A DNA stretch of 43,460 bases from a virus: the IMG/VR virus record IMGVR_UViG_3300008113_004027, positions 1 to 43,460 of that record; one strand, written 5' to 3'. A model generated the notes under the pieces. That model had not been told where the DNA came from. It was given only the letters and a program-made list of their open reading frames with translations, and made no database searches. Positions 1-26,192 of the stretch are shown piece by piece (the first letter of the stretch is position 1; every line of letters starts with the position of its first letter). The position numbers and the translations under genes are program-made.

Positions 1-180
1 ATTTGGGATCCGGATACTGAGAACAAACACTATATCAATAGCAATGCCGGCTTCTGGAATGACGAAGACTGGCATGGCGGCGACAGTATAGGCGAACAGG
101 ATTATGCTTTACGTGTAGATTGTAAATTTACAGAAGAGTTTCGCAAGGCTCTTAAGATAGATTATTTGGAAAATTATTAA
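1..180 (+). CDS. C-terminal end of an unidentified protein (5' end outside window)
   Basis: Frame 1 is open from the window edge to a TAA at 178-180, giving the last 59 residues of a protein. The fragment is rich in Asp, Asn and Trp (it contains WHGGDS and EQDYALRVD) and ends in LENY. I do not recognise the family. Its stop shares one base with the ATG of the next gene, so the two are probably co-translated and belong to the same accessory island. The missing N-terminus prevents any functional call. Confidence 0.6.
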   Translation: MWDPDTENKHYINSNAGFWNDEDWHGGDSIGEQDYALRVDCKFTEEFRKALKIDYLENY

Positions 181-914
181 TGAAAATAGGTTTTTTTGGC
201 GACAGCTTTTGTGCAGAAATGAATAATACTTATACTTGGAAAAACAAGTATGATACTTATATCAACAAATTGCAGGATCATTACAAAGCAAAAATAGTAA
301 ATTTAGGATATGGGGGTAGTAGCTATTGGGATCTAATACTGTATCAATTTCCAAAGTTTATTAATAACTTACCTGATGTATGCATATTTGTATGGACTTC
401 GCCTGGACGAATTTATCATCCTGAGTGTCGAAACATTACTTCTTGGGTTTTAGATATAGATAATGTGCCTATTTCAGAATTTCATTATACTAGACTTTTA
501 TATAAGAAAAAATATAAAGTTGCAGCTGAATTTTATAAAGAGCTCTATAATGAGGAAAAAGAAAAGCGAGAACGATTAGCAGCCTTATATCATTACGATA
601 GAGAAGTATTACTTCCCTTAATGGAAAAAACTAAAATAATTCATCTATGGAGTTTTGGTAACTTTAAAACTTGGCACGACCCTAACACACGTTATAGTGC
701 AAACAACATGTATTATGATTATAGATTTTTAAGTGGCACAGAGTGTAGACCAGCTTTAGAAAATTTTTCTAAGTATAATAAAGATGTTGATTATAATACA
801 GATACAGTTTCAAATCATTTATTTGGTAATGAAATTAATGATCTTGTAAAAAACATGTTAGTAGAAGCAATTGACAATCATGGTAACGGAAAAGTTTTAG
901 ATTTTAATTTATGA
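180..914 (+). CDS. SGNH/GDSL-like hydrolase
   Basis: The 244-residue protein begins with a short beta-strand followed by GDSF (residues 7-10), the block I nucleophile motif of SGNH hydrolases. NLGYGGSSYWD at 41-51 fits the block II glycine region. SNHLFG near 211-216 could supply the catalytic His of block V. The block III GxND motif is not obvious: a WTSPGR segment occupies the comparable place, so activity is uncertain. Such enzymes remove or transfer O-acetyl or other acyl groups on glycans. There is no signal peptide, so it should act in the cytoplasm. It overlaps the following oxygenase gene by 4 bp (ATGA), which suggests coupled translation. Confidence 0.6.
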   Translation: MKIGFFGDSFCAEMNNTYTWKNKYDTYINKLQDHYKAKIVNLGYGGSSYWDLILYQFPKFINNLPDVCIFVWTSPGRIYHPECRNITSWVLDIDNVPISEFHYTRLLYKKKYKVAAEFYKELYNEEKEKRERLAALYHYDREVLLPLMEKTKIIHLWSFGNFKTWHDPNTRYSANNMYYDYRFLSGTECRPALENFSKYNKDVDYNTDTVSNHLFGNEINDLVKNMLVEAIDNHGNGKVLDFNL

Positions 915-1408
915 AATATATAGGAAATTATAGTTCTTGGATAAATGACAATTGGATTTCTAAAATATTAGAAACTCCAGGACAAGCCCGCCCCAGAGAT
1001 TGGCCGCCAAATTCTAAAATTGAACAAGAAGAATATCAGCGATATGCAACTTCTGGATACGATCTAAACGCAGTTAATTGGTGGATTTACGAAAGTAAAG
1101 ATCTAGATATAATAATTTCCCCGCCTTGGACCAATGGAAAAATTCATTGGTGGATTACTAACTTAGCCGCAGGACAATTCATGCCAATGCACCCTGATCC
1201 TCATCCACACGATGTTAGCTGTTTGCGATATTGGGTTCCGTTACAGGACTATCATCCTGGGCATATATTTGTATACAAAGATGAAATGATCACTAATTAT
1301 AAAAAAGGTGATGTATATGTTTACACTAGTTCTACAGATTTACATGGCGCTGCTAACATAGGCCAGATACCTAGACTTGTTTTACAAATTACAGAATATG
1401 ACATCTAA
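911..1408 (+). CDS. 2-oxoglutarate/Fe(II)-type oxygenase-like protein
   Basis: The 165-residue protein has the layout of a small double-stranded beta-helix dioxygenase. An HxD metal pair lies in HPD (94-96), followed by a strand with LRYWVPL, a GDVYVY strand, a distal His in LHGA (145), and an Arg at 155 in IPRLVLQ that could bind 2-oxoglutarate. The order matches phage and AspH-like hydroxylases, which hydroxylate protein side chains or small molecules. The substrate is unknown. It overlaps the SGNH-like gene by 4 bp and the radical SAM gene by 11 bp, so the three form one translational unit. Confidence 0.7.
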   Translation: MKYIGNYSSWINDNWISKILETPGQARPRDWPPNSKIEQEEYQRYATSGYDLNAVNWWIYESKDLDIIISPPWTNGKIHWWITNLAAGQFMPMHPDPHPHDVSCLRYWVPLQDYHPGHIFVYKDEMITNYKKGDVYVYTSSTDLHGAANIGQIPRLVLQITEYDI

Positions 1409-2552
1409 GACATATTGCGTATATCCTTTTATAAGTTCTAGTCTGCAAGCAGATAACACAGTTTTGCCTTGCGGACAGTTTATGAAATCTACTCTATTTC
1501 AAAACATTATTCCAATAAATGAAGTAAGACACGGCCCTGTAATGCAAGAAATGCGTAGAAAAATGTTAAACGGCGAACGAGTAGAAGGATGTCAATGCTA
1601 TGCTGAAGAAGATGTAGGTATTCCGTCAATGCGCCAAAGCGGACTTAACAAATATGAATTTACTACTGACACTACAATAAAAAAATTAGAATTAGTCATG
1701 GATAACATCTGTAACATAAAATGCAGAAGTTGTGGTTCACCTAATAGTCATACTTGGCACGAAGATGAAATAAAAATTTACGGAGAATCTTTTTCTAAGA
1801 AAAAATATATTAAAAATACTTTATACAAAGATCTTGAGTTAGATAGCTTAATTGAAATAGAAGTTCTTGGTGGTGAGCCAATGTACAGTCCGGGAACTAG
1901 AGATTTTTTTAAATTATTAAAAGACAAGGACATTTTAAAAAATCTTTCTATACAACTAAGCACAAACGGAACTATAGAACCAACTGACTCTGTATTAGAC
2001 AGTTTATTAAGTTGTAAAGAATTAAGTTTAAATATTAGTATAGACGGATTTGGTCATTATAATGATTATATTAGAAGCGGCTCCGATTGGAATGCAATTG
2101 AACAGAATTTAAAATTTTATGATAACTTAATTGATTTAAGAAAAGATAAAAAAACATCAATGAACGTGCATACGGCAGTAAGCATTTATAATGTAAACCA
2201 ACTCGACTTGTTAGACAACTACGTTAAAGAACACTTCCCTAGATTTTCTAAAACATTTCAACTAGTACAATATCCAGTATTTTTGTCTATTAAAAACACT
2301 CCATTAGAATATAAAGAACTAGTCTCTAAATACATTAATAACGATAGTATTACTGAATATCTCAACTCAGAAGGAAATGATCATTTCCAACATTTTATAA
2401 ACTATTCTCAACAGCTTGATGAAATTAGATCGGAAGATATGGCAGAATTTAATCCGCTGTTAAAACAATATATTGAAAAGTATACTTCTAAGGTAACTAG
2501 AGCAGAAAGTAAAGTTTTTTTAATAAAAGAATTTAAAAAACTACAAAATTAA
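1398..2552 (+). CDS. Twitch-type radical SAM protein
   Basis: With the start at 1398 the protein has 384 residues. It contains the radical SAM 4Fe-4S motif CNIKCRSC (C105, C109, C112) and the SAM-binding GGEP (158-161). Upstream are four further Cys (7, 25, 65, 67) in the layout of twitch-domain radical SAM proteins, which may hold an auxiliary cluster. An earlier ATG-less start at 1377 is possible, but ATG 1398 places the conserved CVYPF at the N-terminus, as in the paralogue at 9726. Radical SAM proteins with auxiliary clusters often modify peptides or sugars. The substrate is not evident. The gene converges on the next gene, and their stop codons share TTAA. Confidence 0.85.
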   Translation: MTSKTYCVYPFISSSLQADNTVLPCGQFMKSTLFQNIIPINEVRHGPVMQEMRRKMLNGERVEGCQCYAEEDVGIPSMRQSGLNKYEFTTDTTIKKLELVMDNICNIKCRSCGSPNSHTWHEDEIKIYGESFSKKKYIKNTLYKDLELDSLIEIEVLGGEPMYSPGTRDFFKLLKDKDILKNLSIQLSTNGTIEPTDSVLDSLLSCKELSLNISIDGFGHYNDYIRSGSDWNAIEQNLKFYDNLIDLRKDKKTSMNVHTAVSIYNVNQLDLLDNYVKEHFPRFSKTFQLVQYPVFLSIKNTPLEYKELVSKYINNDSITEYLNSEGNDHFQHFINYSQQLDEIRSEDMAEFNPLLKQYIEKYTSKVTRAESKVFLIKEFKKLQN

Positions 2553-3772
2553 TTCCAGTCTAGATTATAATGCCAAGTTGGTTTTTTTAAAGTTTCCATA
2601 TTAGTAATTTTAAAATCTTTACTAATTCCCAATGTCTTTAAATTTTCTACAAATCCAACTGCGGCCCTAATATTAAAATTAATTGTACATTCAGGAACTT
2701 TTTCTTTTAATGAATTAATAATTTCATTTTCTTTGTGTACCCTATAGTACAACGGTGACAAACATGCTGTACCTTCGTAGCAAAAAATATTTGATAAATT
2801 AATTAACGTAGTTGAATTATGCTCTGCGTTGATGTAATCTATAAGATTATTTTCTAATAGTAAATCGGCTTTTACAAATATATACTCAATATTATTCTTT
2901 TGTTGAATTTTGTTCTTCCAGTAGTTTAAAGCATTATCATTGTAATCATAAACAACGATTCGACCCTCGTCAATTAAATCAGTATAAAGTAGACCACTAG
3001 CTGGAATAATTAATTGTGTAAATTTTTTATTAACATTGCTATGTTCTTCGGTATTTTCTGTATGAATAAATTCAGATGCTGCATACTTTTCTCGAAAGTA
3101 TACCCAATTAAGATTTTCTAAAAAGTCTTTTTTAGATTCTGGATAAAGATGTTTTTTGTTATGTCTAATATCGTTATTAAATATTTTAACAGGCAGATTA
3201 TATGTAAGTGCTAAACTTAATATATTCCATCCGTGACATTTATGATCATATGATTTAGTTTGATATCCAGTTTTAACCCAAATAGGTGTATAATCATCGT
3301 GTATATTTTCTACACTTCTTTCTGGAATCACTTGAGTATGTTTAGTACCAAGCTCTAATTGACCAATTGCTGGACAACCTAATTTACGATATATTTCTAA
3401 ATTTATTAGATAACACTGATTGTGCAGTTCATAATATGCGGTACCTCTATCTAGAATATGTCCATAGATAAAAAAATCGTCTTTGATAAGATCTTCTAAT
3501 GAATTAAAAAACTCACTTCCGTTAATAAATTCTGTCCCAGTACTAAAGACAAGAGCATAGGTATAATCTAAATTTGCTACATGTTGTAATACAGTATCCT
3601 CATTTAAAGACTGATATACATCATAATTTTTATTTAGTACATTTGATAATGTATAATCAGACTGATTTTTTATAATTTCCTTACAAAAATTATCTTGTAT
3701 CTGATTAGTATTATCTATAAAACAAAATGCAATCTTATTAGAAGAATTATAATTGTACTCAACTACATTCAT
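2549..3772 (-). CDS. Two-part protein of unknown function, possible GT-A-like plus Rossmann-like halves
   Basis: The protein has 407 residues and I do not recognise a firm family. The N-terminal half contains YALVFSTGTEF and GHILDRG followed by YYELHNQCYLINL, a pattern that recalls GT-A-like glycosyltransferase cores in phage accessory islands. The C-terminal half has IIPASGLLYTD and GRIVVYDYND, which looks like a Rossmann strand ending in an acidic residue, as in SAM-dependent methyltransferases. Both readings are weak. It is the last gene of a three-gene minus-strand unit and overlaps the radical SAM gene upstream by 4 bp (ATGA). It converges on the plus-strand radical SAM gene. Confidence 0.55.
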   Translation of the reverse strand: MNVVEYNYNSSNKIAFCFIDNTNQIQDNFCKEIIKNQSDYTLSNVLNKNYDVYQSLNEDTVLQHVANLDYTYALVFSTGTEFINGSEFFNSLEDLIKDDFFIYGHILDRGTAYYELHNQCYLINLEIYRKLGCPAIGQLELGTKHTQVIPERSVENIHDDYTPIWVKTGYQTKSYDHKCHGWNILSLALTYNLPVKIFNNDIRHNKKHLYPESKKDFLENLNWVYFREKYAASEFIHTENTEEHSNVNKKFTQLIIPASGLLYTDLIDEGRIVVYDYNDNALNYWKNKIQQKNNIEYIFVKADLLLENNLIDYINAEHNSTTLINLSNIFCYEGTACLSPLYYRVHKENEIINSLKEKVPECTINFNIRAAVGFVENLKTLGISKDFKITNMETLKKPTWHYNLDWN

Positions 3773-4770
3773 TTTTTATAAAATTTAATAGGCAAAACAT
3801 TTTCTTCGGTCAATATTACTTCATTTTGAGATGACGGACACATTGAACATTCACTAATTGGTTTATACTTAGAAATAGAAAAATTTTCTACTTCTTCGTC
3901 AGTACAATTAGTTAAGTCAAGAGGTTTGTATGCTAAAAATTTCTGCCATTCTTCGTCGTCGACTGCATTATGTCTTTCTAAAAAGTTTTTTAAAGTTCCT
4001 AATGCTGCACACTTATAAAGTTTTTTATTATACATAAATGTACAGTAACAACTTGGACAGTTACCATAATAAGCCTTTTCAATATCCGTTGAGTTAAACG
4101 GTTTTGGTTTATTATCTTTCATGTAAAAATGTTTTAGATGGGAATCTTGATCAATTGAAAGTACACCGTACTGGCCGTTCCACCAAAAGTCATCATCAGG
4201 CGGAATTGGTGATTTATTTTCTATAGCACAATAAGCATTATGTCTATAGTCCTTAACATCAATCCAATAATTCCTCCAACCATCAGTAGAGTCGTACATC
4301 ATCTTTGACCAAAAATTCTCACTAGGAAGTTTTTGAATATCAAGTTTTTCTGTTAACACTTCAACGGCAGCTTTTATTCTATTTGATCGAGTCTTATCTT
4401 CAAATTGAATAAAGTGATCACTAACTAATATCATAACTTTATACTTAACAATAATATTAGATAAGAAGTCTATGTTCTTATCGATAAGTTCGCCATTAGT
4501 TGGAATCCATACTGGTGTAGTTTGATCAAAGCTTCTAATAAATTCTAGGAGTGATTCAATTCTGTCTTTGTATAACAGTGGTTCACCGCCTAGTAAACTA
4601 TAGTGTTCAATATGAAACTTTTCTTTAGTTAACAGAATTCCTTCTTTGATTGTTTCAAGGTCAGGATCATGTTCTCCTTTTCTAATCAAGTCACTACGTG
4701 TATCACACTGTTGGCAGGCAATTTGACATTTATTGCCGTAAAAAATATCAAAAACTTTAAGATTGGGCAT
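3769..4770 (-). CDS. Radical SAM protein with C-terminal Cys cluster
   Basis: The start at 4770 (ATG preceded by AGGAATATA) gives 333 residues. An upstream in-frame start at 4815 lacks a ribosome-binding site and lies deep in the preceding gene. The 4Fe-4S motif CQIACQQC (C15, C19, C22) lies almost at the N-terminus, with GGEP at 61-64. The C-terminal third carries more Cys, in NCPSCYC, a later KCAALG, and CSMCPSS, suggesting one or two auxiliary clusters of SPASM or twitch type. It overlaps the AspH-like gene upstream by 14 bp and the next gene by 4 bp. Such enzymes often act on peptides. The actual target is unknown. Confidence 0.85.
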   Translation of the reverse strand: MPNLKVFDIFYGNKCQIACQQCDTRSDLIRKGEHDPDLETIKEGILLTKEKFHIEHYSLLGGEPLLYKDRIESLLEFIRSFDQTTPVWIPTNGELIDKNIDFLSNIIVKYKVMILVSDHFIQFEDKTRSNRIKAAVEVLTEKLDIQKLPSENFWSKMMYDSTDGWRNYWIDVKDYRHNAYCAIENKSPIPPDDDFWWNGQYGVLSIDQDSHLKHFYMKDNKPKPFNSTDIEKAYYGNCPSCYCTFMYNKKLYKCAALGTLKNFLERHNAVDDEEWQKFLAYKPLDLTNCTDEEVENFSISKYKPISECSMCPSSQNEVILTEENVLPIKFYKK

Positions 4771-5503
4771 TATATTCCTTTTTATAACTTCTAGCAACGA
4801 GTTTAGTAAACTCACTTGTTTTATTTTCTAATTTACCGTGCGCAATTAAATGTATCCTAGACGTGTTAGATAAATTTATTACGCTATGATAATTTCTAAT
4901 ATTTATGATAAATGCTTTTCCGGTTTTAAATGGAACACATCCGTAACCGTCCAAGCTCATATAACATTCTTCTGGATGTACTAATGCTATGTTTATGGGA
5001 ACTCCAAATTTGAGAGCATCAAAGTTTTCTTCACCAGGTAATTTACCAGGGGCATCACTATGCGGGCTAATATGCCCTCCTGCTTCCAATTCCATAAATC
5101 TTATTCTTCTATAAGTATCGTACGGAAAGTTCTTCCAAAATTCTTTAATTACAGGTGTTTTGGATGCTACCGGGGTCCAATCATATGGTACTTGATCTTC
5201 ATGGGTGTAACCATACGAAGTCCATGCACCGGTGCTAGCCGCGTTTATACCGTGTATACAGCAACTATTCCACCCATGACTATCGCTTTCTCTATGAGGA
5301 ACTAAATGTACTTTTGAATCCTCAGCTTCTTTAATCCATTTATCAACATCAAACTCAATATCAAGTTCTAACCAACCAAAATTACTTTTGTTCAATAACC
5401 AATCTGCTATTTCATAATCAGTTTTCGCCCATTCAGGCATTTTAGGTAAGTTAGATTTTATATTTTTGTTTTTGTGATAAAAATCCAACGCAGTGGTATT
5501 CAT
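4757..5503 (-). CDS. Aspartyl/asparaginyl beta-hydroxylase-like oxygenase
   Basis: The 248-residue protein shows a full Fe(II)/2-oxoglutarate set: HSD (H148, D150) after GGHISP, distal His H206 in NYHSVINLS, and Arg R216 in TSRIHLIAHG. The last block strongly resembles the AspH family, which hydroxylates Asp or Asn side chains, and the related proline hydroxylases. The N-terminal 120 residues form an extra domain with two adjacent Cys (81-82). It is the first gene of the minus-strand trio with the radical SAM gene. A TATAAATA late promoter lies 28 bp upstream and is shared, in palindromic form, with the divergent radical SAM gene. Confidence 0.85.
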   Translation of the reverse strand: MNTTALDFYHKNKNIKSNLPKMPEWAKTDYEIADWLLNKSNFGWLELDIEFDVDKWIKEAEDSKVHLVPHRESDSHGWNSCCIHGINAASTGAWTSYGYTHEDQVPYDWTPVASKTPVIKEFWKNFPYDTYRRIRFMELEAGGHISPHSDAPGKLPGEENFDALKFGVPINIALVHPEECYMSLDGYGCVPFKTGKAFIINIRNYHSVINLSNTSRIHLIAHGKLENKTSEFTKLVARSYKKEYNAQS

Positions 5504-5530
5504 GTCATTAACCTAGTATTTTATATCTTG

Positions 5531-5542
5531 TATTTATAAATA
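5531..5542. promoter_or_regulatory. Palindromic bidirectional T4-type late promoter
   Basis: The 12-bp sequence TATTTATAAATA is a perfect palindrome. It contains a T4-type late -10 element (TATAAATA) on the plus strand at 5535-5542 and another on the minus strand at 5531-5538. It is the only element seen in the 43-bp gap between two divergent genes. The plus-strand copy ends four bases before the ATG of the radical SAM gene at 5547. The minus-strand copy lies 28 bp from the ATG at 5503. Confidence 0.7.
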
Positions 5543-5546
5543 GTTT

Positions 5547-6380
5547 ATGAACACAAAAATAAAAATCCCACATCTTGAGTGGCATGTTGCTCATGCTTGT
5601 AATCTATCTTGTAAAGGTTGTTGCCATCTTTCTGATTATGGGCAAAAAGGAATAGTTAGTTATAATGAGATCAAAGACTGGTATTCAAAATGGAGTCATA
5701 GACTAGCACCAAAATCAATAGACATTTTAGGGGGAGAACCTTTATTAAACAAAGATATCTGTAAAATTATTTCTTTAACAAGAGAAATGTGGGATGATCC
5801 GTATCTAGAACAATTACAATTAACAACTAACGGACTTTTAATTCACAAATTTCCAGATTTACCTAAAGTATTAAAAGATTCTAATTGTTCTATTTCAGTG
5901 TCTTGGCATAGTGAAGATCCAAGTTATAATAAATTGTTTGATAAATCTAAAAACATTTTAAATGAATGGGTAGAAAAATACGGAATCCAAGTTCGTATAC
6001 TAGATTTTTATAATTATTGGACTCCATTTTATAAAGGTTACGGTAGCACTATGGAACCGTTTAACGAAGAAAACTTTGAAAAAAGTTGGGATAATTGTAT
6101 AACGGGACAAGATTGTTTTCAGATATATAATGGCGATATTTATAAATGCTCAAATTTAGCGTACTTGCCTATGACTAAACAAAAAATTAATCTTTCAGAG
6201 AATTGGGATTATTATCTAAGTTATGTTCCACTAAAGCCGGAAGCTTCGGACAATGAAATTACAGAGTTTTTTAATAAAGGTGCAGAAAAATTTTGTAGTA
6301 TGTGTCCCAATTCAGTTGAAATGATTAAAAAACCAGATCCTTTAAAATTTCGTAAACAAATACTGATGAAGAAAATTTGA
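5547..6380 (+). CDS. Radical SAM protein with C-terminal Cys cluster
   Basis: The 277-residue protein has the cluster motif CNLSCKGC (C18, C22, C25) and GGEP at 62-65. The C-terminal half contains CITGQDC, then YKCSNL, and finally FCSMCPNS, so an auxiliary cluster is likely. The order resembles the minus-strand protein at 3769-4770, which also ends in CSMCP, so the two may be distant paralogues. No Shine-Dalgarno sequence fits ahead of ATG 5547, and the late promoter ends four bases before it, so the message may be leaderless. No later Met lies before the Cys motif, which fixes this start. The next gene starts 2 bp after the stop. Confidence 0.85.
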   Translation: MNTKIKIPHLEWHVAHACNLSCKGCCHLSDYGQKGIVSYNEIKDWYSKWSHRLAPKSIDILGGEPLLNKDICKIISLTREMWDDPYLEQLQLTTNGLLIHKFPDLPKVLKDSNCSISVSWHSEDPSYNKLFDKSKNILNEWVEKYGIQVRILDFYNYWTPFYKGYGSTMEPFNEENFEKSWDNCITGQDCFQIYNGDIYKCSNLAYLPMTKQKINLSENWDYYLSYVPLKPEASDNEITEFFNKGAEKFCSMCPNSVEMIKKPDPLKFRKQILMKKI

Positions 6381-6382
6381 TT

Positions 6383-7585
6383 ATGAAACAAGGAAGATTA
6401 ATAAACTTTGAATTACTGTGGGATACTGACCTAAGCGTCAATGTTGTATTACCAAAACTACTTGAATTAGAATTTCAAGAAGCAGTAGCTGACGGAGTAA
6501 CTACCATTTTTGGAATGTTTTTAATGGAGGGAATTTATCCGCATGATTGTCATAATCAACAACTGTTTTTAGAAATTAAAAAAATAGCTGACAAATACAA
6601 TTTAGAAGTTATTCTATTGTCAGGCCTTGGAGAAAGTTTTAACAATCAGTATAGTATAGAAAATGGTAGTATTTTAAACAATCTTCCATTTGAGGTAATA
6701 TACTCATCATATCCTTTAAGAGTATGTTACAACATCATTAATAATATTCCTAGAAAATCAAAAACTATCAATAATAAGTTTTTATTCTTAGGTGGAATTC
6801 CTACTAGATTAAATAGAATTTATTTATTAAGTAAGTTGTATGAAAACAATCTTTTAATAAATGGTAAATGGTCATTTTTTATTCCGTTATCCCAAGAAGA
6901 TAAAAATTATTGCAGAAATTTATTATCACATTATTCAGATGAAGAGTACGAAACTTTTTTAAAAAACTGTACTAGCTCAATAGATGAAAAATATCAAGAA
7001 ATGGCTAACTTTTTTCAAGACTATGCACCGTACGAAGAAGGCGATCTTGAAAAGTGGGGCGAAATAGTTCATACTGATTTTTGGAAAAATCCTATATACA
7101 TAGATCCTGAAGTTTACGATGAAACTTCGTTAAGTATAATTTCTGAAGGTCCAAATTATTGGTCGCCTGATTATAAATTTATTACAGAAAAAACATGGCG
7201 GACAATAATTTATAAGCATCCTTTTATATTTGCAGGCCCGCCTGAACAGTTTAGATATATTAAACAAATGGGATTTGAAACATTTGAAAAATATATGCTT
7301 ATTCAAAATTATGCACAGGTGGAAGATGAAAAAGAAAGAATTGAATTGATTGTTAAAAATGTAGAACATTTTTTAAAACACCAAACTTATCATCAAAAAG
7401 AAATACAACAAGATATTGAACATAATTTTAACTTATTCTTAAAACTAGCCAATGATCAAAATTGTCTACTAACATCTTTAAAATCAAAATACAATATTCC
7501 TGATGCTGAGTTTTCAAAATTTTTTAGTACAACCGGCTATGAAAATTTGATTAGGCCCGTTGCCGACCTCAAAAAATTAGGCTAG
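6383..7585 (+). CDS. Glycosyltransferase-like protein, paralogue 1
   Basis: The start at ATG 6383 gives 400 residues. A TTG at 6377 is in frame but starts inside the preceding stop. The protein begins with a LINFE segment and has a strongly conserved C-terminal block at about 250-310, including ISEGPN, FITEKTWR, HPFIFAG and RYIKQMGFETF. The TEK...HPFI..G...GF.TF arrangement resembles the donor-binding part of GT-B enzymes such as the GT10 family, but this is a motif-level guess. A paralogue at 8555 has the same architecture. It follows a radical SAM gene, so the two may act in one modification route. Confidence 0.55.
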   Translation: MKQGRLINFELLWDTDLSVNVVLPKLLELEFQEAVADGVTTIFGMFLMEGIYPHDCHNQQLFLEIKKIADKYNLEVILLSGLGESFNNQYSIENGSILNNLPFEVIYSSYPLRVCYNIINNIPRKSKTINNKFLFLGGIPTRLNRIYLLSKLYENNLLINGKWSFFIPLSQEDKNYCRNLLSHYSDEEYETFLKNCTSSIDEKYQEMANFFQDYAPYEEGDLEKWGEIVHTDFWKNPIYIDPEVYDETSLSIISEGPNYWSPDYKFITEKTWRTIIYKHPFIFAGPPEQFRYIKQMGFETFEKYMLIQNYAQVEDEKERIELIVKNVEHFLKHQTYHQKEIQQDIEHNFNLFLKLANDQNCLLTSLKSKYNIPDAEFSKFFSTTGYENLIRPVADLKKLG

Positions 7586-7617
7586 CATCATATTCGTAGT
7601 TATCAATAGTGTATGGT

Positions 7618-7625
7618 TATAAATA
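7618..7625 (+). promoter_or_regulatory. T4-type late promoter
   Basis: TATAAATA lies 28 bp before the ATG of the aminotransferase-like gene, in a 68-bp gap. The distance leaves room for a short leader. This is the consensus late -10 element read by gp55-type sigma factors in T4-like phages. It should start a second transcript for the genes from 7654 to 13426. Confidence 0.75.
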
Positions 7626-7653
7626 AGTTTATGACTATATCTGTTAGACTATC

Positions 7654-8568
7654 ATGAAAAATAATTACGATAAACGGCATCTTCCTTTTGGACATTCTAC
7701 AGCTATACAAGACAAAGAAACATTATCTTTTATCAATAATTGTAGTATCTCAACACAAACATTAAACGATCAAACAATTAACGAACAATTCCTTAGCAAG
7801 TATGTAGAATGGATATTGACTACAACAAATAACAAAGTAACTGGTATTGATCAGTATCCATTCAAATGTTTTTCGCAAGGGACATCTGAAGCGTTTGAAA
7901 AATTTTATATGAATTATTCTCATAGAAGATTTCGATGTTTTAAAGGCGAGTATGTTTATCATAAATTAGCTTGGAGAGATGATAGATTTAATTGGAAATA
8001 CTTAGAGGATGATGCGCTTGATGCCAATGACGTAGTAATAATTAGTCAACCTTTTTCTGATACAGGCGATCAGCATCCTTTACTTAATGATATTTTAGAT
8101 CAATGTGACAAACTAAATATTCCTGTAGTACTTGATTGTTGCTACTTTGGTATTTGTAGTAATATAAATTTTGATTTTACAAGACCTTGTATAAAAGAAA
8201 TCATCTTTAGTTTATCTAAAACTTTTCCAGTAGCTCATATTAGAATAGGTATGCGTCTTTCAAGGATTGATAATGACGATTTGTTATTTGTGTATAACAA
8301 AAGTGGCTACACAAATAGATTAGCAGCAAGTATAGGACTTAATCTTATTAATCATTTTGATTCTGACTACATAGTTAATAAGTATAAAAATAAACAAATT
8401 GAAATCTGTAAAAAATTAAATGTAACTCCTAGCAATACTGTGTTGTTTGGAATAGGCGGCTCTGAATGGCAGGAATACAATCGTGATAGAGCTACTAACA
8501 GATTAGGATTACATAATTTTTTACACATGGAAGATACAGAGTGCTTAGATGAATATGTCAAAATCTAA
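7654..8568 (+). CDS. PLP-dependent aminotransferase-like protein (fold type I)
   Basis: The 304-residue protein shows the order of a fold type I PLP enzyme: a phosphate-binding-like SQGTSEA (74-80), LDCCYFG with D161 and Y164 that would contact the cofactor, SLSK with K189 as the Schiff-base lysine, and an Arg at 201. It is shorter than typical class I/II aminotransferases (about 380-400), lacking part of the small domain, so it may be a reduced or divergent enzyme. It would move amino groups onto a keto-sugar or keto-acid. It sits between two glycosyltransferase-like paralogues and upstream of an amidinotransferase, which would need an amine acceptor. The start follows a late promoter. Confidence 0.7.
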   Translation: MKNNYDKRHLPFGHSTAIQDKETLSFINNCSISTQTLNDQTINEQFLSKYVEWILTTTNNKVTGIDQYPFKCFSQGTSEAFEKFYMNYSHRRFRCFKGEYVYHKLAWRDDRFNWKYLEDDALDANDVVIISQPFSDTGDQHPLLNDILDQCDKLNIPVVLDCCYFGICSNINFDFTRPCIKEIIFSLSKTFPVAHIRIGMRLSRIDNDDLLFVYNKSGYTNRLAASIGLNLINHFDSDYIVNKYKNKQIEICKKLNVTPSNTVLFGIGGSEWQEYNRDRATNRLGLHNFLHMEDTECLDEYVKI

Positions 8569-9736
8569 AATTATAAATTTTGAATGGATGTGTGATCACA
8601 ATCATTACACCCATGAACAATTTGATAAAATTAAAACTGATTTAATTAAAAAAGACATTGATCAAGCCATAGATGAAAATGTTGATACTGTTGTAGGGCT
8701 TTATCTAATGGATGGGTTTTTACAACCTAAGTATAGATACAAAGAGTTTATTTTGCACCTAAACGAAATAAAAGATTATGCTTACAATGCTGGAATTAAA
8801 AAAATAATTCTAATAAGTGGCCATGGCGAAACATTAGATAATTGTCCCTTTGAATACCTGTTTTTAGATTTTAATCTTAGATTATTAATTAATAGCTATC
8901 CTGATCTAAATGTATTACCTAAATTCAATCCTGAAAATACAAAGTTTCTCTTTTTAACTGGCATGCCAAATAGACCTAATCGTATAGGTCTATTGAGCAA
9001 GTACTATGATAAAGATTTATTAGACACTGCTGAGTGGAGTTTTTTTGGCCCATGGACACCTATGGATCAATCTTGGTGTAGAGAATATCTTAAACATTAT
9101 AGTGATGAACACTACAATACATTTTTAATTAATTGTGAAAGATCTTTTGATAATAGATATGAAACGTGTAAGCCATTCTATGGATCGTATACTTCAACGG
9201 AAAATGCACCGCTATGGTATGATGTAGTTAATATTGACTGGGTTCAATTACCCAGTCATATTGATTCTAAAGTATATAGCGATACACTTTTTAGTGTTAT
9301 ATCTGAAGGTCCAAATTTTTGGTCTGAAGATTGGAGTTTCATTACAGAAAAAACATGGCGAACTTTTTTACATCGTCATCCTTTTATATTTGCCGGGCAC
9401 CCTGATCAATTTAGATATATTAAGAAACTTGGATTTAAAACATTTGAAGAATATTTGTTAATCAAAGATTACGCCTATATTGAAGATGAAAATGAAAGAC
9501 TAGATGCTGTAGTCAAAAATACAGAATACTTATTAAAAAATATAAAAAATAATTTAGATGCTATAGAAAAAGACGTAGAATATAATTATCAAATGTATTT
9601 TAATCATGTAAACAATCAGGATAAAATTTTTAAATTCTTAAAGCACGATTTAAATGTTTCGTCAGATGATATCCAGCCATATGCTAATATCAAAGGTTAT
9701 CCGTATCTCATTAGGAGAATACCTGATGGATTCTAA
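8555..9736 (+). CDS. Glycosyltransferase-like protein, paralogue 2
   Basis: With the start at 8555 the protein has 393 residues and aligns from its first residues with the protein at 6383 (IINFE versus LINFE). ATG 8549, two codons earlier, is also possible. The C-terminal block VISEGPN, FITEKTWR, HPFIFAG, RYIKKLGFKTF is nearly the same as in the paralogue, and some stretches are also identical in DNA. This suggests a gene duplication. Function is inferred only from a GT-B-like motif pattern. It overlaps the aminotransferase-like gene by 14 bp and the next radical SAM gene by 11 bp. Confidence 0.55.
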   Translation: MSKSKIINFEWMCDHNHYTHEQFDKIKTDLIKKDIDQAIDENVDTVVGLYLMDGFLQPKYRYKEFILHLNEIKDYAYNAGIKKIILISGHGETLDNCPFEYLFLDFNLRLLINSYPDLNVLPKFNPENTKFLFLTGMPNRPNRIGLLSKYYDKDLLDTAEWSFFGPWTPMDQSWCREYLKHYSDEHYNTFLINCERSFDNRYETCKPFYGSYTSTENAPLWYDVVNIDWVQLPSHIDSKVYSDTLFSVISEGPNFWSEDWSFITEKTWRTFLHRHPFIFAGHPDQFRYIKKLGFKTFEEYLLIKDYAYIEDENERLDAVVKNTEYLLKNIKNNLDAIEKDVEYNYQMYFNHVNNQDKIFKFLKHDLNVSSDDIQPYANIKGYPYLIRRIPDGF

Positions 9737-10658
9737 ATGTGCAGCTTTCTGGAAACATACTAATGTTCGTAGCGATAACAAAATATTTCCCTGTTGTAGA
9801 TTTAAGAATCCTGTAGATAATTTCAACGGCGATTTAATTCATATATTAGAGTCCAGTGCATATAAAGAACTTAGAAAAAAAAGTTTAAACGGTGAATTTA
9901 TCCAAGGTTGCGAAAAATGCTATTACGAAGATGCCAACGGTAGGCAAAGTCTTCGACAACGATTAAACAAAGAATATACTACTGACACAGTTGAATTAGA
10001 ATTTTTAGAAATAGGGTTTGACAATATATGTAATTTAACCTGTGACGGATGCTGGAGTGATTTTAGTTCCGAGTGGAGTAAAAAACTTAACCCTACTGCA
10101 AACAAGATTACTCACTATCGTTCAGTTGATGAGATTGTTAAAGTTCCGTCTAGTATTAAAAAAATACTCTTTTTAGGCGGTGAACCTTTAATGACCAACC
10201 GGCATGAAAAGTTTTTAAAACTAATTGAAAATCCAGCAGCAGTTGAAATAATTTACAACACTAACGGAATGTTTTTGTTAAAAGAAGAATTTATTAATTT
10301 TTTACATCAGTTTAAATCGGTAAAATTTACGTTAAGTATTGATGGGTACAAAGATCTAAATAACAAAGTTAGATCTGGAAGTAAGTGGGAAGATATTTTA
10401 AGTTTTATAGAACAGATATCTAAATCTAACTTTGATCTAGAAGTGAATACAGTGTTACATTTAAATAACTGGCACGGAATAAAGGAGCTTGAATCCTTTA
10501 TACAACAATTAGGAGTACCGTGGATAGTAAATGTTTTAACATATCCTACACATTTAGATATTTCTAATTTTGAACAAAAGGAACAAATTATTAATTTGAT
10601 TAGCGAAACAAACATTCCAAATAAAACTTATGTCATTAACCATCTATTACATAATTAA
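9726..10658 (+). CDS. Twitch-type radical SAM protein, paralogue of 1398-2552
   Basis: ATG 9726, preceded by TTAGGAG at good spacing, gives 310 residues. The motif CNLTCDGC (C102, C106, C109) and GGEP (151-154) mark a radical SAM enzyme. An N-terminal Cys set (5, 23, 24, 62, 65) and the segment LNGEFIQGCEKCYYED match the layout of the protein at 1398 (LNGERVEGCQCYAEED), so the two are paralogues. Twitch-type members can hold an auxiliary Fe-S cluster. The substrate is unknown. It overlaps the glycosyltransferase-like gene by 11 bp, the same overlap length as the other twitch gene has with its upstream neighbour. Confidence 0.85.
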   Translation: MDSKCAAFWKHTNVRSDNKIFPCCRFKNPVDNFNGDLIHILESSAYKELRKKSLNGEFIQGCEKCYYEDANGRQSLRQRLNKEYTTDTVELEFLEIGFDNICNLTCDGCWSDFSSEWSKKLNPTANKITHYRSVDEIVKVPSSIKKILFLGGEPLMTNRHEKFLKLIENPAAVEIIYNTNGMFLLKEEFINFLHQFKSVKFTLSIDGYKDLNNKVRSGSKWEDILSFIEQISKSNFDLEVNTVLHLNNWHGIKELESFIQQLGVPWIVNVLTYPTHLDISNFEQKEQIINLISETNIPNKTYVINHLLHN

Positions 10659-10673
10659 TAAAAGGAGTTATTT

Positions 10674-11294
10674 ATGAGTTCAGAATTTTATCAGTATTTT
10701 GATTATCCAAATTGGTTAGAACATCAAAAAAAATTGTTAGCATATAGACAATTAAAGATGGCTGACATCGTAACTGACAATCAATCATGGGCTGCGTTAA
10801 ACTATGATGAATTTTCTATGGATTTAAAAGATGTTATTGACGATTATGCACAGCTTGGTCTATACATAAAACAGTTAATTTTTATATCTTTCCCCCCTAC
10901 TGATTTAAATTCTACAGACATGAATGATCCAAAAACAATTTATATACATGTTGACAGTAAGGATGACGATGAACATTTGTTAAAGGAATCAGCTCCTACA
11001 TTGTTTTCTCCAAGATATGTATTTAATATTCCATTAATAAATTGTGAAAACAGTACTACGTTTTTTTATGATTTTATAGATCCAAATAAACACACAAAAG
11101 ACACTCATGTATATTTTGGAGGTTGTGTCGATTACAGTAATGTAGTTGAAGTGGATAAATTTACTCTTAACAAACCTGCATTTCTAAAAGTTAGTGTTCC
11201 CCATGCAGTGCATAATCCTACTGATAGTTTAAGAATTGTTTGTAGTATGCGTGTTGATGATAGTAGTCCATTACTAAAAAGGCTTTTCAAATGA
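10674..11294 (+). CDS. 2-oxoglutarate/Fe(II)-type oxygenase-like protein
   Basis: The 206-residue protein starts after a strong AAAGGAG site. It has a plausible metal site with HVD at 92-94, a distal His at 177 or 180 in PHAVHNP, and an Arg at 187 in LRIVCSMR, which fits 2-oxoglutarate binding. The first 70 residues show no known motif. The spacing of HxD, His and Arg matches small phage dioxygenases and AspH-like hydroxylases. It overlaps the next oxygenase gene by 4 bp. Confidence 0.65.
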   Translation: MSSEFYQYFDYPNWLEHQKKLLAYRQLKMADIVTDNQSWAALNYDEFSMDLKDVIDDYAQLGLYIKQLIFISFPPTDLNSTDMNDPKTIYIHVDSKDDDEHLLKESAPTLFSPRYVFNIPLINCENSTTFFYDFIDPNKHTKDTHVYFGGCVDYSNVVEVDKFTLNKPAFLKVSVPHAVHNPTDSLRIVCSMRVDDSSPLLKRLFK

Positions 11295-11866
11295 CATCAA
11301 CTATAAGCTGTAAACGGTATATTGAATATAACAAGATTATTAGTGCTGTAGATTCAATGGCTAAAAAAGTTGCAGAATTTAGAGAAACTATGTCAAGTGA
11401 TATGTACGACTTGACTCAAGTTGACCCGGCTCCTGATTTAACAGACATACATCCTAGAGATAGAAAAAATGTTAAAATTCTTTGCGGTGCTTTGCCCTTT
11501 GATGGAAAACCAAACTTAGGCAAACTATTAAAAGAAGAATCAGATATACTAACAAATTTAAAAGGATATTCTGCTGGGTTTGTTTTCTTTATGACTCCAA
11601 ATTCAATCTTACCATTACATGTACACGGCGAATATGTAGCGAAAGATTCAAACGATACAATAGGAGTTTGGAATGCCTGTTTTGGAATTACAGTACCGTC
11701 GACAGATTCTAACATGGTAGGTATAGAAGTAAACGGTGAAGTTTATTCTCATGGTCATAATGTAGATGTAACATTTGACCCACAAACACCGCATCAAGCA
11801 TGGAACCACACTAACGAGTGGTGGACTATGTTAATCTTAAATATTGATAAGAGATTTTTTATTTAA
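11291..11866 (+). CDS. AspH-like (aspartyl/asparaginyl beta-hydroxylase) protein with altered site
   Basis: The 191-residue protein resembles the AspH fold. H110 lies in LPLHVHGE, a VNGEVYSHG strand follows at 147-155, and FDPQTPHQAWNHT (162-174) carries the distal His 168. The usual Arg a few residues later, which binds 2-oxoglutarate, is a Trp here (about 178). The usual LRxH-like stretch is also not conserved, and HVH replaces HxD. It may use a different co-substrate or be non-catalytic. It overlaps the upstream oxygenase by 4 bp. The next gene follows after 10 bp. Confidence 0.7.
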   Translation: MTSTISCKRYIEYNKIISAVDSMAKKVAEFRETMSSDMYDLTQVDPAPDLTDIHPRDRKNVKILCGALPFDGKPNLGKLLKEESDILTNLKGYSAGFVFFMTPNSILPLHVHGEYVAKDSNDTIGVWNACFGITVPSTDSNMVGIEVNGEVYSHGHNVDVTFDPQTPHQAWNHTNEWWTMLILNIDKRFFI

Positions 11867-11876
11867 AGGAAATATT

Positions 11877-12935
11877 TTGAAAATATCAACAAATAATCAT
11901 TGGGATCCATTAGAAGAAATAATTGTAGGCATAGCTGATCATGCACGAGTGCCTACAGTGGACAGAAGCACCATGAATATGAGCTACAGTAACTATAGTA
12001 TGGATAGTGTTAAACCTTTAGAAGGAGCATATCCTCAATGGTTAATTGATGAAGCTAACGAAGACTTGGAAGGATTGGCTACCGCGCTAAGAAAAGCCGG
12101 AGTTAAAGTACATAGACCAAAGCCGTTAGATCACAGTAAACAGTTTAGTACACCAGAGTGGCAAACTACTGGTTGGTATACTTGGTGTCCTAGAGACTTA
12201 CTGTTGCCGTTAAAAAATCTAATTATTGAAACGCCTAGTGGGTGTCGTTCTAGATATTTTGAAACTAGGGCATATCACGATATAATGTTAGAAGCAGTTC
12301 GAGATGGAGTTGAATGGATAGCAGCACCTAAACCTATTCTATTAGATGAAGGCTATCAATTTGAAGATATACAAGGAAAGCCAAGTTTATTAAATTTAGA
12401 ACCTATATTTGATGCTCCTAACTGTGTGCGTTTGGGTAAAGATATTTTATTTCAAATTTCAAACACTGGTAATCATTTAGGAATGCAATGGTTAAAAAAT
12501 GTGCTTGAACCTAGAGGTTATAGAATACATGCGGCAGAGCATATTTACAGTTTTGCTCATATGGATAGTACCATCGTTCCTTTAAGTCCGGGGAAAGTTT
12601 TGTTAAATAGTACTAGAGTCACGCCTGAAAATTGTCCTAAGATATTTGAAAAATGGGATAAGATATGGTTTAAAGATGTAAATATTAATCCTACTACAGA
12701 AACCGGACCAGGCAGTATCAGTCCGTGCAGTCCGTATATAGGAATGAATATTTTAAGTATAAACCCTAGTACAGTAATAGTAGGCGAAGATCAGATTAAT
12801 TTAACAAGAGTTTTAGAAAAACAAGGATTTGATGTAGTACATGTAAAAATGCGGCACGCTCAAACACTTAGTGGCGGACTTCATTGTACTACTTTAGATT
12901 TAAGAAGAACAGGATCGTTAGAGGATTATACATGA
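11877..12935 (+). CDS. Glycine amidinotransferase-like enzyme
   Basis: The likely start is TTG 11877, since AAAGGA lies seven bases before it and it falls after the preceding stop. An earlier TTG at 11844 lies within that gene. The 352-residue product shows the amidinotransferase set: RDLLLP, an ETPSGCRSRYFE segment, Asp 179 in FDAPNCVRLG, His 228 in FAHMDS and Cys 337 in GGLHCTTLDLRR. These match the Asp-His-Cys triad of arginine:glycine amidinotransferase (AGAT). The enzyme would move an amidino group from arginine to an amine acceptor. An aminotransferase-like gene upstream could make that amine. It overlaps the next oxygenase gene by 4 bp. Confidence 0.85.
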   Translation: MKISTNNHWDPLEEIIVGIADHARVPTVDRSTMNMSYSNYSMDSVKPLEGAYPQWLIDEANEDLEGLATALRKAGVKVHRPKPLDHSKQFSTPEWQTTGWYTWCPRDLLLPLKNLIIETPSGCRSRYFETRAYHDIMLEAVRDGVEWIAAPKPILLDEGYQFEDIQGKPSLLNLEPIFDAPNCVRLGKDILFQISNTGNHLGMQWLKNVLEPRGYRIHAAEHIYSFAHMDSTIVPLSPGKVLLNSTRVTPENCPKIFEKWDKIWFKDVNINPTTETGPGSISPCSPYIGMNILSINPSTVIVGEDQINLTRVLEKQGFDVVHVKMRHAQTLSGGLHCTTLDLRRTGSLEDYT

Positions 12936-13426
12936 TTGAGTTTGTAACAAATATAAAAGATTTTTGGTCAACTGATTTAGAAAAATTTGTCTTTCCAGTT
13001 ATGTCACCTCTTAACACTAATGTAAGAGATTATTGGAATCATCCTAATTTTCAAAATGCCAAACCTCTCTTGCAAGCATTTGACAATGATTTACCAGAGT
13101 ATTGGAATAAATTTCTAATTGAGCTAGGTACAACAGAAGGTACAGTATCTTGGACTAACCTAGTACCGGGTCAAGTCCTACCTGTTCATACTGATGAGTT
13201 TTATAAACTAAGAACCAAGTACAATGTTGATATAGAAAAATGTAGAAGATATTTAATTTTTCTAAATGATTGGGTACTTGGACATTCTGTTGATTTTGAA
13301 GAAAAGACTATAACAAGATGGAAGTGTGGAGATGTTTGGTTATTTGATCATCGTTCATTCCACTGCGCCGCTAATGCTTCTACAGTAGATTTTATAACCT
13401 GTCAGGTTAATACTATTACGATTTAA
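12932..13426 (+). CDS. 2-oxoglutarate/Fe(II)-type oxygenase-like protein
   Basis: ATG 12932 overlaps the stop of the amidinotransferase gene (ATGA) and gives 164 residues. The metal site is HTD (86-88) after LVPGQVLPV, with distal His 144 in SFHCAANAS. Strands CRRYLIFLNDW and GDVWLFDH lie between them, typical of the double-stranded beta-helix fold. The C-terminal strand lacks a clear Arg for 2-oxoglutarate, so co-substrate use is uncertain. It is the last gene of the island. Its stop converges on the tail-fibre stop, with TTTAA shared at the join. Confidence 0.7.
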   Translation: MIEFVTNIKDFWSTDLEKFVFPVMSPLNTNVRDYWNHPNFQNAKPLLQAFDNDLPEYWNKFLIELGTTEGTVSWTNLVPGQVLPVHTDEFYKLRTKYNVDIEKCRRYLIFLNDWVLGHSVDFEEKTITRWKCGDVWLFDHRSFHCAANASTVDFITCQVNTITI

Positions 13427-25965: not shown

Positions 25966-26192
25966 TGCGTTAAACCGTAGGCCAATGCTTGAAGTTCTTC
26001 TTTAGTCATAAAAAAATTGTATGTTTGACTATCGGCAACTTCACCGTCTTTTAAACTTTCTTGAATAAGTTCAAGACTAAACAATCCCTTAGGGTTTAGT
26101 ACTTCGTGTTTTACCATGCGTACACGATAACCATCGTGTTCTTTAATTGTCATTTCTCTACGAGTGTGTGCAACTGATTCATGTAGTTTCAT
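25962..26192 (-). CDS. Small hypothetical phage protein
   Basis: The 76-residue protein begins MKLHESVAHTRREMTI and has a strand-helix pattern (GYRVRMVKHEV, FFMTKEELQALAYGL). A AAAGGAC site lies before the ATG. No motif is recognised. It overlaps its neighbours by 4 bp. Confidence 0.6.
   Translation of the reverse strand: MKLHESVAHTRREMTIKEHDGYRVRMVKHEVLNPKGLFSLELIQESLKDGEVADSQTYNFFMTKEELQALAYGLTQ

What the first reader, a model, noticed from the sequence alone, without database searches (positions are those of the whole stretch)
180..13426. Dense accessory island of radical SAM enzymes, oxygenases, amidinotransferase and aminotransferase beside a tail fibre
Seen: four radical SAM proteins (1398, 3769, 5547, 9726), five oxygenase-like proteins (911, 4757, 10674, 11291, 12932), a PLP aminotransferase-like protein (7654), an amidinotransferase-like enzyme (11877), an SGNH-like hydrolase (180) and two glycosyltransferase-like paralogues, mostly joined by 4- to 20-bp overlaps. 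Known: AspH-type oxygenases and radical SAM enzymes with auxiliary clusters often modify peptides; AGAT moves an amidino group to an amine. Inference: the genes form one late pathway that adds or alters a group, possibly a guanidino sugar or a hydroxylated side chain, on a virion protein such as the adjacent tail fibre.
Basis: partly seen in the sequence, partly recalled or inferred. Interest (0 to 1): 0.85.

Follow-up and report, generated by a model that had tools for sequence, protein, structure and literature searches.

The report
Phage island for building guanidino groups
A large virus of bacteria carries a long, evolutionarily conserved block of enzyme genes beside its tail-fibre genes, and a three-gene core of it looks built to attach an arginine-like guanidine group to something, probably a surface sugar, which would be unusual chemistry for a virus if confirmed.

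Summary
The genes are real and largely as described, but the finding is only the right end of something larger. In a near-identical 185.8-kb phage contig the island runs about 44.6 kb (51 called genes plus the Mtd_N fibre; 15 radical SAM), between a left fibre array and that fibre. Seven further contigs carry it in nearly the same order (longest collinear run 15-33 of 18-36 orthologues; random maxima 10-15). Inside it is a smaller unit that also occurs elsewhere: a 2OG-type oxygenase, a PLP aminotransferase and a StrB-like amidinotransferase. The aminotransferase lies within 5.2 kb upstream of the amidinotransferase in 36 of 36 island-type and 12 of 15 distant viral loci with enough DNA, and in 0 of 9 bacterial loci. 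I read it as oxidise, aminate, amidinate: installing a guanidine. A sugar acceptor is favoured (StrB is the closest solved relative; a predicted GT-B glycosyltransferase and its paralogue; epimerase linkage; bacterial homologues near deacetylase and mostly NeuB genes) but not shown. The aminotransferase fold is of the amino-acid type. Fibre modification is unproven: a fibre-like neighbour is found in 22 of 25 island loci and 0 of 5 distant ones. Known kind (phage surface or secondary-metabolite clusters), new variant.

The parts
180..914 (+). SGNH/GDSL-like protein (weak)
   Evidence: PF13472 E 0.0073, below cut-off; homologues in G003, G006, G009
911..1408 (+). OX1, small putative 2OG oxygenase
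   Evidence: no Pfam match; HxD...H conserved in 8 contigs; the OX5 profile finds OX1-position genes in relatives at about 1e-12 to 1e-17
1398..2552 (+). TW6, twitch-type radical SAM protein
   Evidence: NF033640 232.8 bits over cut-off 170
2549..3772 (-). protein of unknown function, methyltransferase-like C-terminus by eye only
   Evidence: no confident family; orthologues in 7 of 7 other contigs, 44-83%
3769..4815 (-). RS6, radical SAM protein
   Evidence: PF04055 33.9 bits; CxxxCxxC
4757..5503 (-). AspH1, aspartyl/asparaginyl-hydroxylase-type oxygenase
   Evidence: PF05118 33.9 bits, over cut-off; orthologues 57-67% in 7 of 7 contigs
5547..6380 (+). RS7, radical SAM protein
   Evidence: PF04055 39.6 bits
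6383..7585 (+). GT1, paralogue of GT2
   Evidence: 42% identical to GT2 in the family alignment; no family match; not modelled
7654..8568 (+). AT, PLP aminotransferase, class I/II fold
   Evidence: Lys189 invariant in an alignment of 19; model pLDDT 89.9; Z 22.2-23.5 for the 50 listed entries
8549..9736 (+). GT2, predicted GT-B glycosyltransferase
   Evidence: model pLDDT 88.8; VIA-align Z 8.9-11.1, listed rows nearly all glycosyltransferases; Foldseek gave nothing at E<=0.001
9726..10658 (+). TW7, twitch-type radical SAM protein
   Evidence: NF033640 212.4 bits, PF13186 SPASM
10674..11294 (+). OX3, putative oxygenase, sporadic
   Evidence: no family match; reciprocal orthologues in 2 of 7 contigs
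11291..11866 (+). AspH2, aspartyl/asparaginyl-hydroxylase-type oxygenase
   Evidence: PF05118 27.1 bits, over cut-off
11877..12935 (+). AGAT, StrB-like amidinotransferase
   Evidence: phmmer to 1bwd E 1.1e-93; Asp190, His239, Cys348 invariant in an alignment of 13 viral sequences
12932..13426 (+). OX5, 2OG-type oxygenase linked to AT and AGAT
   Evidence: HxD and distal His invariant in 20 sequences; within 5.2 kb of AGAT in 28 of 29 and 5 of 5 loci
13423..14568 (-). fibre-like protein with Mtd_N domain, right border of the island
   Evidence: PF18454 E 2.3e-9; match in 22 of 25 island-type loci

Best explanation
The region is the right end of a large phage island whose core is a guanidine-installing pathway. 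Inferred steps: (1) OX5, a 2-oxoglutarate/Fe(II)-type oxygenase, oxidises a carbon on the acceptor; (2) the PLP enzyme AT turns the resulting carbonyl into an amine; (3) AGAT moves the amidino group of host L-arginine onto that amine, leaving ornithine. The acceptor is most likely a sugar or sugar nucleotide, shaped by the island's epimerase, twitch-type radical SAM enzymes and other modifying enzymes, and the GT-B enzyme GT2 with its paralogue GT1 attaches it, most likely to the phage's own fibre proteins, whose genes border the island. Shown by comparison: the linkage and co-inheritance of OX5, AT and AGAT, their conserved active-site residues, the island's order and its fibre borders. Inferred: each reaction, the order of steps, the sugar, and the fibre as target.
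For: AGAT aligns end to end with StrB and with AGAT of animals, has invariant Asp190, His239, Cys348, and evolves about as slowly as two backbone genes (dN/dS 0.044 against 0.032 and 0.060). AT upstream of AGAT in 36 of 36 island-type and 12 of 15 distant loci with 5.2 kb of upstream DNA; OX5 within 5.2 kb in 28 of 29 and 5 of 5; both 0 of 9 in bacterial AGAT loci. Distances of AT, OX5 and AGAT correlate (r 0.79 and 0.72 with AGAT; 0 of 2000 permutations, 39 loci). The trio occurs outside the island: L092-L098 share the window's backbone (44-83% identity) and carry it between the homologues of window 26604-27083 and 25965-26192, where the window's own genome has none; 25 other distant loci share none of the nine backbone genes tested. 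Synechococcus phage S-SCSM2R has an OX5 relative directly upstream of its AGAT (HMM 2e-24), with an annotated AHBA-synthase-like protein, radical SAM and glycosyltransferases. Sugar side: StrB is the best solved relative; GT2 models as GT-B and a GT relative lies upstream of AGAT in 40 of 42 island-type loci; a relative of the island's NDP-sugar epimerase sits next to AT or AGAT in L075, L086, L087, L089-L091 (PDB matches); bacterial AGAT relatives have a polysaccharide-deacetylase homologue within 2.5 kb in 9 of 9 and NeuB within 10 kb in 7 of 9 loci. Fibre side: Collar-domain fibre left, Mtd_N fibre right.
Against: AT has the fold of amino-acid aminotransferases, with arginine oxidases RohP, Plu4 and MppP among tied best matches, and no PF01041 (DegT sugar aminotransferase) match. 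GT2's best structural matches include T4 DNA glucosyltransferases, and no sequence profile calls it a glycosyltransferase. Distant loci have no fibre neighbour by my query (0 of 5) and an upstream same-strand GT relative in only 3 of 33 (L083, L099, L108). L102, L103 and L106 lack AT. AT occurs in Pelagibacter phage Mosig, where no AGAT was found. F379 has AGAT without OX5 or AT of these families. Bacterial loci come from one pattern scan and may be a biased sample. No reaction was measured; that OX5 makes a ketone or aldehyde has no direct support.
Confidence: 0.35

Rival explanations
1. Same chemistry, other destination: the guanidino sugar remodels the infected cell's surface glycan (LPS, O-chain or capsule) and keeps competing phages out.
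For: This is the published reading of glycosyltransferase genes in pelagimyophage host-recognition clusters (PMC7029224, passages) and of jumbo cyanophage sugar clusters (PMC7824862 section 3.4.10). Bacterial AGAT relatives mostly sit near NeuB-type surface-sugar genes.
Against: In G001 only 3 of 52 called genes exceed a 19-residue hydropathy mean of 1.6 (122036, 127185, 141728), so no obvious flippase, polymerase or ligase is carried; host machinery could still be used.
Confidence: 0.22
2. The enzymes modify protein side chains directly, without a sugar: radical SAM and AspH-type enzymes functionalise fibre residues and AGAT adds the amidino group to a new or existing amine.
For: 15 radical SAM genes, several with twitch/SPASM matches; two PF05118 AspH-type enzymes over cut-off; OX5's weak PDB matches include 1e5r, deposited as proline oxidase (E 0.17), after the alkylsulfatase AtsK (0.018).
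Against: An epimerase and GT-B-like genes would be unexplained. The radical SAM family match does not tell peptide from sugar substrates.
Confidence: 0.15
3. The island makes a small molecule: a guanidino amino acid, antibiotic or signal used during infection.
For: AT's fold is that of amino-acid enzymes including arginine oxidases; a secondary-metabolite role was proposed for a related cyanophage cluster (PMC7824862).
Against: Island borders are fibre genes on both sides; few hydrophobic proteins that could export a product; no separate short precursor-peptide gene is evident, as the called genes leave gaps under about 100 bp, though my simple gene caller could hide one.
Confidence: 0.18
4. 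The island hypermodifies the phage's DNA bases.
For: GT2's top structural matches include T4 alpha- and beta-glucosyltransferases (tied with other GT-B enzymes); a GTP cyclohydrolase gene and a radical SAM gene that looks like QueE by eye lie in the backbone.
Against: A tRNA-guanine transglycosylase relative in 0 of 5 contigs, and a thymidylate-synthase-family gene in only 1 of 5 (contigs are incomplete). Far more enzymes than known base modifications need.
Confidence: 0.03

Closest known systems
Radical SAM plus amidinotransferase clusters of Campylobacter phages CP220 and CPt10 (PMC2853527, passages; F379 locus L035)
   Same: Five radical SAM genes and a putative amidinotransferase in one interchangeable cluster; AGAT 35% identical in CP220 and F379, 23% in CPt10
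   Different: No OX5 or AT of these families found in F379; 10-12 genes rather than about 51; the paper suggests non-essential, fitness-related metabolism
Host recognition cluster of pelagimyophages (PMC7029224, passages)
   Same: Large island beside fibre genes with glycosyltransferases and, in some, radical SAM cassettes; mean 44.6 kb
   Different: Those are T4-like and described as hypervariable and nonsyntenic; here gene order is conserved over much divergence and a guanidine-installing core is present
Jumbo cyanophage LPS and secondary-metabolite clusters, P-SSM2 and S-SSM6a (PMC7824862, section 3.4.10 read)
   Same: NAD-dependent epimerases, glycosyltransferases, several 2OG oxygenases, methyltransferases
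   Different: Carbamoyltransferase and halogenase core in S-SSM6a; 'radical SAM' and 'amidinotransferase' occur 0 times in that paper's text
Streptomycin pathway enzymes StrB and its aminotransferase partner (recalled, except the StrB match)
   Same: Amination followed by amidino transfer; AGAT's closest solved relative is StrB
   Different: AT here has a class I/II fold, not the sugar-aminotransferase family recalled for streptomycin; no cyclitol dehydrogenase identified; product unknown
Synechococcus phage S-SCSM2R cluster (L034)
   Same: OX5 relative next to AGAT; annotated AHBA-synthase-like protein, radical SAM, 2OG oxygenases and glycosyltransferases nearby
   Different: No AT of this window's family in the stretch; AGAT 34% identical

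Membership tests
L-arginine:X amidinotransferase (StrB/AGAT family) | Full-length similarity to solved members | tested here: met
   Residues 14-362 to 1bwd, E 1.1e-93; also HsvA, SxtG, AGAT
L-arginine:X amidinotransferase (StrB/AGAT family) | Catalytic Asp, His, Cys (residue roles recalled) | tested here: met
   Asp190, His239, Cys348 align with the solved enzymes and are invariant in 13 viral sequences
L-arginine:X amidinotransferase (StrB/AGAT family) | Acceptor specificity | not testable with these tools
   No assay
Class I/II (fold type I) PLP aminotransferase | PLP lysine and fold | tested here: met
   SLSK lysine 189 invariant in 19 sequences; Z up to 23.5, 292 aligned, rmsd 3.4
DegT/DnrJ sugar aminotransferase | Match to PF01041 or to its structures | tested here: inconclusive
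   No PF01041 match for AT at E 0.05; other enzymes fill the structure lists
NF033640 twitch-domain radical SAM | Score over the curated cut-off (170 bits): proteins at 1398 and 9726 | tested here: met
   232.8 and 212.4 bits
NF033640 twitch-domain radical SAM | Score over the curated cut-off (170 bits): proteins at 3769 and 5547 | tested here: not met
   29.2 and 24.3 bits
PF05118 aspartyl/asparaginyl hydroxylase | Score over the curated cut-off: OX5 | tested here: not met
   15.1 against 22.6 bits
PF05118 aspartyl/asparaginyl hydroxylase | Score over the curated cut-off: AspH1 and AspH2 | tested here: met
   33.9 and 27.1 bits against 22.6
GT-B glycosyltransferase (GT2) | GT-B fold | tested here: met
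   Model: VIA-align Z 8.9-11.1, listed rows nearly all glycosyltransferases; Foldseek alone E > 0.001
GT-B glycosyltransferase (GT2) | Sugar-transfer activity | not testable with these tools
   No assay; no sequence-family match
RiPP biosynthetic cluster | Short precursor-peptide gene beside the radical SAM genes | tested here: inconclusive
   Largest gap between called genes in the window part is 68 bp; no precursor models were searched, and a precursor elsewhere is not excluded
Phage host recognition cluster | Island bordered by fibre genes, with glycosyltransferase and radical SAM genes | tested here: met
   Mtd_N fibre right, Collar-domain fibre left; fibre-like match in 22 of 25 loci
Phage host recognition cluster | Position between VrlC and gp14 genes | not tested
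   Not examined; DNA polymerase closest to Phosso and Atu_ph07

The most novel reading that the evidence does not exclude
A virus-encoded pathway synthesises a guanidino sugar by an oxygenase, aminotransferase and amidinotransferase relay, and places it on the virus's own tail fibres, giving the virion positively charged, arginine-like groups made after translation; the three-gene core spreads between phage lineages as a unit.
Probability: 0.28. Interest if true: 0.87.

Novelty: new variant of a known kind. Interest (0 to 1): 0.62.

Why it matters
Phage islands beside fibre genes are usually set aside as 'LPS genes' or unknown. Here one conserved core gives a precise, testable chemical prediction (an arginine-derived guanidine) in phages that include a cultured cyanophage with a partly matching core. 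If true, it would show viruses building a new type of surface chemistry and give a handle on what the many phage radical SAM and 2OG enzymes do.

Tried and rejected
Nucleotide search of window 1-25000 in 50,697 phage records: no match. tblastn of GT1 and of the conserved gene at G001 148560 in the same records: no match; of the island's most conserved twitch protein: 3 records at 23-26%. Genes scattered at random: rejected by collinearity (the random control counted forward order only). A dedicated precursor peptide: none evident between called genes, not excluded. DNA modification: lowered, not excluded. Bacterial origin of the whole island: the one genome-contig scan found nine bacterial AGAT relatives at 37-42% whose neighbourhoods lack AT and OX5; the tenth (L058, 85%) looks like a phage contig in a SAR116 MAG. 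Profile searches of the PDB with the GT and X370 alignments: nothing convincing; with OX5: weak 2OG-enzyme matches only. DegT-type structures were not among the 50 listed matches of the AT model. Literature: the listings showed no paper on this oxygenase-aminotransferase-amidinotransferase unit; I opened four papers, in passages or one section; most subscription papers and all bioRxiv preprints are not held. Results that go against the reading: L102, L103, L106 without AT; L076 without OX5 within 5.2 kb (it has one about 6.3 kb upstream); 0 of 5 distant loci with the fibre query; island-only AT-AGAT distance correlation of r 0.39, so much of the overall correlation comes from the split into two groups. 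G007's OX5 is missing because my fetched stretch ended at base 40,000. In one search the orthologue lists exclude the separate stretches G002b, G003b, G003c.

Full report
What is in the window. The window is a virus record of 43,460 bases. Its DNA polymerase is closest to Sinorhizobium phage Phosso and Agrobacterium phage Atu_ph07 (48% and 45%), so this is probably a piece of a jumbo-phage genome.

The island is larger than the finding. Near-identical contigs exist. Window base 1 is base 149,196 of G001 (185,762 bp; 6 mismatches in 30,805 compared bases). A family search of nine parent contigs with NF033640 gave 8-18 matches in each; PF04055 gave 10-19 in the five contigs searched. Gene calling in G001 (a simple longest-frame tiling) shows the block from 117,976 to 162,621: 51 called genes plus the fibre, 15 of them with CxxxCxxC and a radical SAM match. 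It also holds a cold-shock domain fused to a 2OG oxygenase, a methyltransferase, two weak short-chain-dehydrogenase matches, a weak QueC-like PP-loop protein, an NDP-sugar epimerase, and several proteins without a family whose conserved His/Asp pattern looks oxygenase-like. To the left is a fibre array with a Collar domain. Island GC is 0.327 against 0.354 and 0.382 on its sides.

Conservation. Against G002, G003, G004, G006, G007, G008 and G009, I found 33, 33, 29, 32, 36, 31 and 18 reciprocal best orthologues; the longest collinear run was 28, 22, 28, 27, 33, 24 and 15, and strand agreed for 33, 33, 29, 31, 35, 30 and 17; random maxima over 2000 permutations were 10-15. Some contigs were only partly fetched, so absences are not losses. 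Catalytic motifs are conserved. Against L004, AGAT has dN/dS 0.044, OX5 0.200, AspH2 0.189, four flanking backbone genes 0.032-0.112, fibre 0.246 (dS is 0.6-2, so values are rough).

The core unit. Scanning viral contigs with the AGAT alignment gave 75 loci, an island-type group (42) and a distant group (33; AGAT 52-59% identical to the query). Of loci with at least 5.2 kb upstream, AT lies upstream on the same strand in 36 of 36 island-type (23 of 23 after removing 95% duplicates) and 12 of 15 distant (8 of 10). OX5 lies within 5.2 kb in 28 of 29 and 5 of 5 loci with 5.2 kb on both sides (19 of 20 and 4 of 4 without duplicates). None of nine bacterial AGAT loci has either. In the distant loci the usual order is OX5, AT, AGAT, in some with a further 370-residue protein (X370) before AGAT. 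L092-L098 share the window's backbone (of nine backbone proteins tested, 6-8 found per locus except 4 in L093, 44-83% identical) and carry the trio between the homologues of window 26604-27083 and 25965-26192, a place where this window has no such genes. L100 shares four of the nine; the other 25 distant loci, many of them short, share none, so the trio probably occurs in several phage lineages. Distances agree between the three proteins (r 0.79, 0.72, 0.68; 0 of 2000 permutations, 39 loci), less so inside the island group (0.39-0.53, 26 loci).

Chemistry. AGAT is StrB-like. AT has an invariant lysine and a class I/II fold, with arginine oxidases among many tied matches. OX5 keeps HxD and a distal His. 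GT2 has no sequence match but its model fits GT-B glycosyltransferases, Z up to 11.1, 275 residues, rmsd 4.5; Foldseek alone did not reach 0.001. The simplest order is oxidation, amination, amidination, which would place a guanidine on a carbon. This order is inferred.

Sugar or not. For: StrB as closest solved relative; a relative of the island's epimerase beside AT or AGAT in six loci (L075, L086, L087, L089-L091), and epimerase and UDP-glucose-dehydrogenase-type genes just upstream of the trio in L082; a GT relative upstream of AGAT in 40 of 42 island-type loci, the two misses (L004, L006) having about 1 kb or less of upstream DNA; bacterial AGAT relatives with a polysaccharide-deacetylase homologue within 2.5 kb in 9 of 9 loci and NeuB within 10 kb in 7 of 9, where deacetylation could free the amine that AGAT uses. 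Against: the amino-acid-type AT, an upstream GT relative in only 3 of 33 distant loci, and the tie of GT2 with DNA glucosyltransferases.

Target. The island is bordered by fibre genes, and a fibre-like match lies in 22 of 25 island-type loci with 9 kb on both sides (missing L017, L023, L027), but in 0 of 5 distant loci (the query may be too divergent). Only 3 of 52 called genes in G001 exceed a hydropathy mean of 1.6, so a self-contained envelope-glycan export system is not seen. This fits cytoplasmic modification of virion parts, but does not prove it.

Compared with what is known. Campylobacter phages CP220 and CPt10 have clusters with five radical SAM genes and a putative amidinotransferase, called an interchangeable module (PMC2853527, passages). 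Pelagimyophages have fibre-side islands with glycosyltransferases, some with radical SAM cassettes, read as host-surface changes (PMC7029224, passages). Jumbo cyanophages have sugar and possible secondary-metabolite clusters (PMC7824862, section 3.4.10 read; 'radical SAM' and 'amidinotransferase' occur 0 times in its text). A virus survey discusses creatine-pathway methyltransferase genes (PMC11360552, passages). Two further phages tie in: S-SCSM2R, with an OX5 relative adjacent to AGAT, and Mosig, with an AT relative in an enzyme island beside fibre genes but no AGAT found. I therefore class it as a new variant of a known kind.

Verdict. Observation confirmed and extended; interpretation partly supported; linked guanidine-installing unit likely, sugar acceptor favoured, fibre target open.

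Noticed in passing
L084:3532-4644, L086:1156-2280 and 4093-5220, L098:12509-13642, L101-L105, and G003 172578, G006 72083, G008 43142, G009 8069: X370, a conserved 370-residue family that often sits next to OX5 or directly before AGAT; its N-terminal half has conserved His-rich motifs that look oxygenase-like by eye, no Pfam or PDB match over threshold.
   Followed up: partly
L056 (Pelagibacter phage Mosig 46936-71610): Enzyme island beside tail fibres: AT relative, MoaA-like proteins, carbamoyltransferase, nitroreductase-domain proteins, desaturase-domain protein, two Asp_Arg_Hydrox proteins as annotated.
   Followed up: partly
window 21555-22409 (-) and 23566-24402 (-): A radical SAM protein that looks like QueE by eye (PF04055 28 bits, just below cut-off) and a GTP cyclohydrolase in the backbone, hinting at a 7-deazaguanine pathway; no TGT relative in 5 contigs.
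   Followed up: partly
G001 144276-145307 (L038:4276-5307): Cold-shock domain fused to a 2OG-Fe(II) oxygenase (PF00313 and PF13640).
   Followed up: no
L059-L067: Bacterial StrB-like amidinotransferases with a polysaccharide-deacetylase homologue within 2.5 kb in 9 of 9 loci and NeuB within 10 kb in 7 of 9, suggesting guanidino nonulosonic acids or similar sugars.
   Followed up: partly
L058 (JADHOR010000039.1): Contig of a Candidatus Puniceispirillum MAG that carries the island's AGAT (85%), TW7 and fibre-like genes; probably a phage contig and a weak hint that SAR116 bacteria are hosts.
   Followed up: no
G001 127185-129153 (L037:7185-9153): Two overlapping frames, one with a hydrophobic stretch and overlapping a radical SAM gene; may be a frameshifted or miscalled gene.
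   Followed up: no
window 39506-40576 (-): Protein with a pterin-4a-carbinolamine dehydratase domain at residues 205-282 of 357.
   Followed up: no
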